A stretch of 40,225 nucleotides of DNA from Candidatus Calditenuaceae archaeon (GTDB taxonomy: Archaea; Thermoproteota; Nitrososphaeria_A; Caldarchaeales; Calditenuaceae), in assembly GCA_025058225.1 (NCBI GenBank), contig JANXEE010000017.1, positions 66,084 to 106,308 on the forward strand, read 5' to 3'. This document shows, piece by piece, positions 24,496-25,555 of this stretch. Both the position numbers and the translations under genes were made by a program. The notes beneath the pieces were generated by a model. That model worked only from the letters and a program-made list of their open reading frames with translations. It was not told the DNA's origin and made no database searches. Each line of letters begins with the position of its first letter. The stretch's first letter is position 1.

Positions 24496-24885
24496 TCAGT
24501 AGACGTATCCGAGGAGCTTCCCGCCCAGACCTCTCTGCTTCGCCTCCCTGTGGGACATCACGCCCTGGTTCGTTGTGACCACCAGTATCCCCACGTCCCT
24601 GCTCGGAAGGTAGCGCTTCTCGAACTCCTCGAAGCCGTCCTTGCTGACGCTGGACCTCGGCCTTATCGGCCCCGCTCTGTTTATCCTTCCCAGAAGCTGG
24701 ATGACCACCTTCCCTCCCCTCCTGTCCTCAAGGTACTCGAAGGCCCCAACGTAACCGTGCCTCTGCAAAGTCCTCAGTATCTCCACCACGAGCTTCGAGT
24801 ACTTGTGGACGCACTCCTTGTTCCTGACCATCTCGTTGTTGTAGAGCTTCGTGAATAGCCCGCTCACGTGGTCGAACGTCGCCAT
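24496..24885 (-). CDS. rps8: 30S ribosomal protein S8 (uS8)
   Basis: A 129-residue archaeal uS8. DHVSGLFTKLYNNEMVRNKEC opens the protein, and the C-terminal motif SRDVGILVVTTNQGVMSHREA is the rRNA-binding region of this family. It normally lies in the spc cluster between uS14 and uL6. Here it is alone, convergent with the HhH gene three bases away, and with tRNA DNA upstream. GAAGGAG abuts the ATG at 24885 and a TATTTTAGG sequence lies about 35 bases upstream. Confidence 0.96.
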   Translation of the reverse strand: MATFDHVSGLFTKLYNNEMVRNKECVHKYSKLVVEILRTLQRHGYVGAFEYLEDRRGGKVVIQLLGRINRAGPIRPRSSVSKDGFEEFEKRYLPSRDVGILVVTTNQGVMSHREAKQRGLGGKLLGYVY

Positions 24886-25136
24886 CTCCTTCAGTCCGCC
24901 GTGCCGTCCCTCCTAAAATACGTGGGACCGATTCCCCAGGGACTCGGCGCCGCAGCCATCGATGGATCGCCAGTCAAACCCGCAAACGGCTGAGGTCGTA
25001 GCGCCCTCGCTCGCTCTGCTCGACGCGGTAGAGGAGGGCATAGCAGTCGTGGACGATGTGACTTCCTTTGGGGAGGCGGTGACGTGATGGCGTAGAGTCA
25101 GCGCTCAAGGCCGCACCTTGACGGGGGTCGTAGTAT
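24886..25136. other. Intergenic stretch upstream of rps8, no gene recognised
   Basis: I found no convincing protein or RNA gene in these 251 bases. They contain the rps8 promoter region at the left end. A 41-codon open frame (24962-25087, plus) and a longer minus frame (24974-25210) exist but have no family similarity, no ribosome binding site, and the second runs through tRNA-like sequence. A structured RNA cannot be ruled out by eye. Confidence 0.4.
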
Positions 25137-25184
25137 GGGTGGGGCTGGGACTTGAACCCACGAACCCCGGCGGGACGACCGCGG
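25137..25184 (-). tRNA. 3' half of a class II tRNA (orphan or split; no 5' half seen)
   Basis: On the minus strand a T-arm is plain: GTGGG, loop TTCAAGT, CCCAG (25161-25145), with one G-G mismatch at the outer pair. Before it is a variable arm TCCCGCCGGGGTTC (25175-25162), nearly that of the neighbouring tRNA-Leu. After it are CCCCACC and C, in the place of the acceptor 3' strand. A matching 5' strand GGTGGGG with a D-arm is not found in the next 300 bases on that strand. The sequence upstream (GCGGCCGCCTCCGCGG) is GC-rich and self-complementary. It may be the 3' piece of a split tRNA, a tRNA with large introns, a pseudogene or an old attachment site. Confidence 0.5.
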
Positions 25185-25470
25185 AGGCGGCCGCATGTCT
25201 CAGTATTCACGGCAAGACCGTTTCGGCTGATATTGTTACATGTGAGCGTTACAGAACTTCTAGCGGATGGTCGCGTCTCTCTCGAGACGGCTCGGCATGT
25301 TGTATGCGAGTCTGTACCGAAGGTTTGGCGGCGAAGGGTTCACGTCCAGCGACGTGGCTGAGCTGCCGGGGTGGCGTTGCTGAGGCTGGGGAAGGCTGGT
25401 GCGGCCTACGTTCATGATAAAAGCTCCACATGCACCTGCTCCAAAAACAGGAGATGGCCCGAAAAATGTC
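25185..25470. other. Stretch between the tRNA 3' half and tRNA-Leu
   Basis: These 286 bases hold no protein-coding frame that I accept. They are flanked on both sides by the same tRNA 3'-end sequence in direct orientation (15 identical bases). GC-rich inverted segments such as GCGGCCGC are present, and the composition is mixed. It could hold introns, a structured RNA or the remains of an insertion; none is demonstrated. Confidence 0.35.
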
Positions 25471-25555
25471 TGCGGGGGGTGGGATTCGAACCCACGAACC
25501 CCTACGGGACAGGGCCCTGAGCCCTGCGCCTTTGACCAGGCTTGGCTACCCCCGC
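25471..25555 (-). tRNA. tRNA-Leu (CAG anticodon)
   Basis: Reading the minus strand, GCGGGGG pairs with CCCCCGC and the discriminator is A. The D-arm is GCC...GGC. The anticodon stem CAGGG/CCCTG closes a loop CTCAGGG with anticodon CAG. The variable arm TCCCGTAGGGGTTC has a small stem as expected for leucine tRNAs, and the T-arm is GTGGG TTCGAAT CCCAC. No intron is needed to fold it. The terminal CCA is not encoded. A TATA-like TAATAGG lies about 40 bases upstream. Confidence 0.95.

What the first reader, a model, noticed from the sequence alone, without database searches (positions are those of the whole stretch)
25137..25184. Orphan 3' half of a class II tRNA next to a complete tRNA-Leu
The variable arm and T-arm of a leucine- or serine-type tRNA are clear on the minus strand, but I see no 5' acceptor strand, D-arm or anticodon arm within the next 300 bases. 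The upstream edge is GC-rich and self-complementary, as in leader sequences of known split tRNAs in Caldivirga and Nanoarchaeum. A discriminator C and a G-G mismatch in the T-stem point the other way, to decay. Split tRNA, multi-intron tRNA, pseudogene and integration remnant are all open.
Basis: partly seen in the sequence, partly recalled or inferred. Interest (0 to 1): 0.62.

Follow-up and report, generated by a model that had tools for sequence, protein, structure and literature searches.

The report
Decayed tRNA-Leu scar from DNA insertion
The lone tRNA half in this hot-spring archaeon is most likely the worn-out footprint left where mobile DNA once inserted beside a leucine tRNA gene, not half of a working split tRNA; such footprints are a known kind of feature.

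Summary
Window 25176-25137 (minus) is a 3' part of a class II tRNA, variable arm to acceptor strand. It is 86% identical over 36 nt to the intact tRNA-Leu(CAG) at 25555-25471, same strand, 295 nt upstream (43.7 bits; best of 200 random windows 29). The genome is a Calditenuaceae archaeon. No 5' half with a GGTGGGG acceptor was found in the genus. The only orthologue (G003) is broken at the T-stem/T-loop border and the GC-rich "leader" hairpin is weaker there. G003 has all five Leu isoacceptors. Between tRNA and fragment lies a decayed nucleotidyltransferase gene, longer in G003. The same anatomy recurs at other tRNA-Leu genes: intact tRNA, toxin-antitoxin-type genes or debris, degenerate 3' half on the same strand. 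At Leu(CAA), G002 has the empty site and G003 a ~130-nt insertion ending in a degenerate 3' half at the native tRNA/flank junction. I read the fragment as a decayed att-type 3'-half duplication in a tRNA-Leu insertion hotspot. No integrase and no empty Leu(CAG) site were found, so the agent is inferred. Known kind, low interest; exchange of flanks among tRNA-Leu genes is the more interesting by-product.

The parts
25137..25176 (-). Orphan, decayed 3' part of a tRNA-Leu: variable arm, T-arm, 3' acceptor strand
   Evidence: 86% identical over 36 nt to tRNA-Leu(CAG); alignment
25175..25194 (-). GC-rich hairpin just upstream of the fragment (the supposed leader); possibly a decayed anticodon arm
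   Evidence: Folded; weaker in the G003 orthologue
25471..25555 (-). Intact tRNA-Leu(CAG), the presumed insertion target, 295 nt upstream of the fragment
   Evidence: ARAGORN, Rfam 55.1 bits; 100% identical in G002 and G003
25415..25470 (-). tRNA-adjacent remnant; the homologous stretch in G002 leads into a VapB/AbrB-like reading frame that is also found next to Leu(UAA) in G003
   Evidence: BLAST and alignments
25267..25420 (+). Remnant of a nucleotidyltransferase-domain protein gene (N-terminal part only, frameshifted)
   Evidence: G003 reads on for 178 aa to its contig end and hits NTP_transf_2, E 9e-10; G002 keeps a different decayed part
24886..25129 (-). rps8-side flank of the island, partly conserved in G002 and G003
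   Evidence: 72% to G002, 96% over the last 72 nt to G003
24496..24885 (-). rps8 (ribosomal protein S8), gene beyond the island
   Evidence: 88-93% identical in three same-genus genomes

Best explanation
The fragment is a non-functional scar. Mobile DNA inserted at the 3' part of a tRNA-Leu gene: one border carries the reconstituted complete tRNA (25471-25555) and the other a duplicate of its 3' half (25137-25176). The DNA in between, which carried a nucleotidyltransferase gene and probably a VapB-type gene, has since been almost wholly deleted, and the duplicate has decayed (C at the discriminator, G-G T-stem mismatch, altered acceptor). Shown: the anatomy, the decay, the recurrence at other tRNA-Leu genes, and one empty-site versus scar pair at Leu(CAA). 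Inferred: that a tyrosine integrase made the original insertion.
For: Same strand and order as tRNA / element / 3' half, with similarity to the tRNA 295 nt upstream. Decayed gene between them, longer in G003. 3'-only Leu fragments at five separate places in the genus (the window one plus four more in G003), four of them on the same strand as an intact tRNA-Leu in the same contig, and no 5'-only Leu fragment seen. Empty site in G002 C92 versus ~130-nt insertion in G003 C16 that ends in a degenerate 3' half at the native tRNA/flank junction. Mobile cargo: a VapB-like frame follows Leu(CAG) in G002 and Leu(UAA) in G003; an MNT-HEPN pair, 91% over 1189 nt, lies in two G003 islands. The conserved rps8-side flank (CGACCCCCGTC) starts within about 8 nt of the fragment's end. 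Literature: integration at tRNA 3' ends leaves a complete tRNA and a direct repeat (PMC3293823, PMC6563490); partial tRNA fragments possibly of this origin are reported in A. pernix (PMC3218864).
Against: No integrase gene or fragment was found in the islands: PF00589 gave one hit in the genus, on another contig of G000, and PF16795 none over cut-off. No empty-site genome was found for the Leu(CAG) locus itself. In G003 the orthologue is not seen next to tRNA-Leu(CAG) because of a contig end and a rearrangement. The fragment differs from the host tRNA at 5 of 36 aligned positions and more in the acceptor, so exact att borders cannot be read.
Confidence: 0.8

Rival explanations
1. Ordinary pseudogene: a whole tRNA-Leu was duplicated in tandem or by recombination between tRNA-Leu genes and its 5' half was lost by deletion; no mobile element was needed.
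For: tRNA-Leu genes recombine in this genus: their downstream flanks are exchanged. A nearly full-length degenerate Leu(UAA) copy stands at G000 C32:67484, about 2.2 kb from the intact gene.
Against: Leu fragments are 3'-only, none 5'-only (few independent cases). The Leu(CAA) empty/scar pair shows a 3' half at the flank junction with other DNA between. Toxin-antitoxin-type genes recur between tRNA and fragment.
Confidence: 0.15
2. Split (trans-spliced) tRNA: the fragment is the 3' half of a working tRNA whose 5' half lies elsewhere.
For: 3' half with GC-rich upstream hairpin; split tRNAs exist in other hyperthermophilic archaea (PMC3218864); the genome is only 73% complete, so a 5' half could be in the missing part.
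Against: Two pattern searches found no tRNA-like 5' half. The G003 copy is cut at the T-loop. All five Leu isoacceptors are complete in G003. Discriminator C and G-G mismatch do not suit Leu or Ser. The hairpin is weaker in G003.
Confidence: 0.02
3. tRNA with large or several introns whose 5' exons lie upstream within the 295 nt.
For: tRNA-Leu genes in this genus carry up to three apparent introns.
Against: In G003 the upstream 217 nt are 88% alike and belong largely to a protein-coding gene on the other strand; no acceptor or D-arm sequence is there; ARAGORN finds nothing.
Confidence: 0.01

Closest known systems
tRNA 3'-half direct repeats (attL/attR) left by archaeal integrative elements of SSV, pNOB8 and pTN3 type
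   Same: Complete tRNA at one border, 3'-half duplicate on the same strand at the other, cargo between; tRNA-Leu is a known target (pTN3 in Thermococcus, PMC5495485)
   Different: Here no integrase is left, the element is nearly all deleted and the repeat is decayed
tRNA-Thr disruption by a mobile element in Caldiarchaeum subterraneum (PMC3293823), a related lineage
   Same: tRNA fragment and intact gene bordering inserted DNA in a related archaeon; flank rearrangement
   Different: There the fragment is a 5' part and a recombinase gene is present; here 3' parts of tRNA-Leu and no recombinase
Split tRNAs of Nanoarchaeum, Caldivirga, Desulfurococcales (PMC3218864)
   Same: A separate 3' half with a GC-rich upstream stretch
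   Different: No 5' half, decayed acceptor and T-stem, broken in the only orthologue

Membership tests
Integrase-made tRNA 3'-half duplication (att scar) | 3' part of a tRNA gene duplicated on the same strand, downstream of the complete gene | tested here: met
   86% over 36 nt, 295 nt downstream, same strand
Integrase-made tRNA 3'-half duplication (att scar) | Empty site without the insertion in a close relative | tested here: inconclusive
   Shown at Leu(CAA): G002 empty, G003 scar; not available at Leu(CAG), where G002 looks like a deletion derivative and G003/G001 are rearranged
Integrase-made tRNA 3'-half duplication (att scar) | Integrase gene or fragment inside the element | tested here: not met
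   PF00589 and PF16795 searches of the genus gave nothing in these islands
Integrase-made tRNA 3'-half duplication (att scar) | Mobile cargo between the repeats | tested here: met
   Nucleotidyltransferase remnant here; VapBC and MNT-HEPN genes in related islands
Split tRNA | Matching 5' half elsewhere in the genome | tested here: not met
   Pattern searches with up to 3 and up to 1 mismatches found no tRNA-like candidate; the genome is 73% complete
Split tRNA | Intact T-arm and acceptor, conserved in relatives | tested here: not met
   G-G T-stem mismatch; G003 orthologue truncated at the T-loop
Split tRNA | Bulge-helix-bulge between the two half transcripts and a spliced product | not testable with these tools
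   No 5' half to pair with and no RNA data

The most novel reading that the evidence does not exclude
In this genus small toxin-antitoxin-bearing modules without an integrase of their own repeatedly enter tRNA-Leu genes, mobilised in trans, and the resulting tRNA-Leu repeats also drive exchange of the chromosome regions downstream of different tRNA-Leu genes.
Probability: 0.2. Interest if true: 0.45.

Novelty: new member of a known kind. Interest (0 to 1): 0.22.

Why it matters
It removes a candidate split tRNA and shows that tRNA-Leu genes of Calditenuaceae are insertion and rearrangement hotspots. That bears on the proposal that tRNA introns and split genes arose as protection against integration (discussed in PMC3218864 and PMC3293823): this genus has many tRNA introns and several tRNA insertion scars side by side.

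Tried and rejected
Split tRNA: two pattern searches for a 5' half; the own-genome candidates read as non-tRNA sequence, in part within coding frames. Rfam/ARAGORN on the fragment: no tRNA call. Exact 22-mer of the fragment in IMG/VR viral contigs: none. Integrase families in the genus: nothing near the islands. A combined search with 12 non-Leu tRNAs gave partial hits that I did not resolve into fragments versus intron-split genes. The 12-nt match CAGCCCCACCCA between the fragment's end and the G003 nucleotidyltransferase gene was noted but not explained. The sigma-70/terminator scan is not informative for an archaeon.

Full report
What is there. The window lies in a 1.17-Mb, 73%-complete archaeal assembly. 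Its named close relatives are Candidatus Calditenuaceae. On the minus strand the only tRNA gene called is tRNA-Leu(CAG) at 25555-25471. 295 nt further on, 25176-25137 reads GTCCCGCCGGGGTTCGTGGGTTCAAGTCCCAGCCCCACCC, the variable arm, T-arm and 3' acceptor strand of a class II tRNA. It aligns to the tRNA-Leu(CAG) sequence at 86% over 36 nt (43.7 bits). In 200 first-order Markov copies of the window the best score was 29.2 bits, so this is not chance. Standard tRNA models do not recognise it.

It is decayed. The T-stem has a G-G mismatch, the base at the discriminator position is C (Leu uses A, Ser uses G; general knowledge), and the acceptor strand CCCCACC does not fit the GCGGGGG acceptor of the Leu genes here. 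In the same-genus genome G003 the orthologous stretch is 84% alike over 286 nt up to GTTCGTGGGTT and then stops at the T-loop, running into an unrelated nucleotidyltransferase-HEPN gene pair. The GC-rich hairpin upstream folds at -8.9 kcal/mol here and -3.5 in G003. A working tRNA half would not be expected to look like this.

No 5' half. A 24-nt pattern for GGTGGGG plus a Leu-type D-arm, with up to 3 mismatches, found in the own genome only three intact Leu genes and one degenerate Leu(UAA) copy. A shorter pattern with 1 mismatch gave as many hits as its reversed control in the own genome, none tRNA-like. The 27% of the genome not assembled is a real limit. G003 has complete genes for Leu CAG, GAG, UAG, CAA and UAA.

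What lies between. On the plus strand, from 25267, there is the start of a protein (MVASLSRRLGMLYASLYRRFGGEGFTSSDVAEL...) that soon stops or shifts frame. In G003 the same reading frame runs on for 178 aa to the contig end and matches the nucleotidyltransferase domain (PF01909, E 9e-10). G002 keeps another decayed part of this gene, preceded by a VapB/AbrB-like frame, and lacks the tRNA fragment. The first ~56 nt after the tRNA are shared by the window and G002. In G002 the rps8-side flank resumes with CGACCCCCGTC, about 8 nt beyond where the fragment ends in the window.

The same anatomy elsewhere in the genus. Leu(UAA) in G003 C9 is followed by a VapB/VapC-type pair and then a degenerate Leu 3' end. 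Leu(GAG) in G003 C15 is followed by nucleotidyltransferase genes and, 4.3 kb on, a Leu(UAA)-type 3' part. A second Leu 3' fragment lies between the MNT-HEPN pair and rps8 in G003 C39. I saw no 5'-only Leu fragment, though the number of independent cases is small. The clearest case is Leu(CAA): in G002 C92 the tRNA end is followed directly by the flank, whereas in G003 C16 a ~130-nt insertion ends in a degenerate 3' half, after which the same flank follows. The VapB-like frame follows Leu(CAG) in G002 and Leu(UAA) in G003 (78%), and an MNT-HEPN pair 91% alike over 1189 nt is in two G003 islands, so cargo appears to have moved between tRNA-Leu sites.

Mechanism. Insertion at the 3' part of a tRNA gene, leaving a complete tRNA at one border and a 3'-half repeat at the other, is the standard outcome of archaeal tyrosine integrases (PMC3293823, PMC6563490, PMC8371274), and tRNA-Leu is the target of pTN3 in Thermococcus (PMC5495485). 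I therefore read 25137-25176 as the decayed far repeat of such an insertion. The step that is not shown is the agent: no integrase was found in the islands, and there is no empty Leu(CAG) site among the genomes at hand. Recombination between tRNA-Leu genes is the main alternative or may have contributed: G003 Leu(CAG) has the upstream of CAG but the downstream flank of GAG, and the G003 Leu(GAG) island ends in the flank that follows Leu(UAG) in G002.

Verdict. Observation confirmed; split and multi-intron tRNA unlikely; scar in a tRNA-Leu insertion hotspot most likely. It is a new instance of a known kind. Partial tRNA fragments tentatively attributed to integration have been reported before in A. 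pernix (PMC3218864), and a tRNA-Thr case in Caldiarchaeum (PMC3293823).

Noticed in passing
G003 C25 (L118), C15 (L109, L135, L140), G001 C1 (L115), against G000 C10 (L137) and G002 C59/C92 (L139, L138): Downstream flanks of tRNA-Leu genes CAG, GAG and UAG are exchanged between species while the upstream flanks stay put, suggesting chromosome rearrangement at tRNA-Leu genes.
   Followed up: partly
G000 C32 around 67484, minus (L108): Nearly full-length but degenerate tRNA-Leu(UAA)-like sequence with an apparent D-arm insert, about 2.2 kb downstream of the intact Leu(UAA), same strand.
   Followed up: partly
L144 2602-3785 and L079 4755-5959: Nucleotidyltransferase-HEPN gene pair, 91% identical over 1189 nt, at two tRNA-Leu-associated islands of one genome.
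   Followed up: partly
L111 388-518, L108 2828-2998: tRNA-Leu(UAA) genes with apparent introns in several places, including D-arm or variable arm.
   Followed up: no
window 25137-25148 and L079 near the G003 nucleotidyltransferase start: 12-nt identity CAGCCCCACCCA between the fragment's 3' end and a stretch of the G003 nucleotidyltransferase gene that is missing from the window copy.
   Followed up: no
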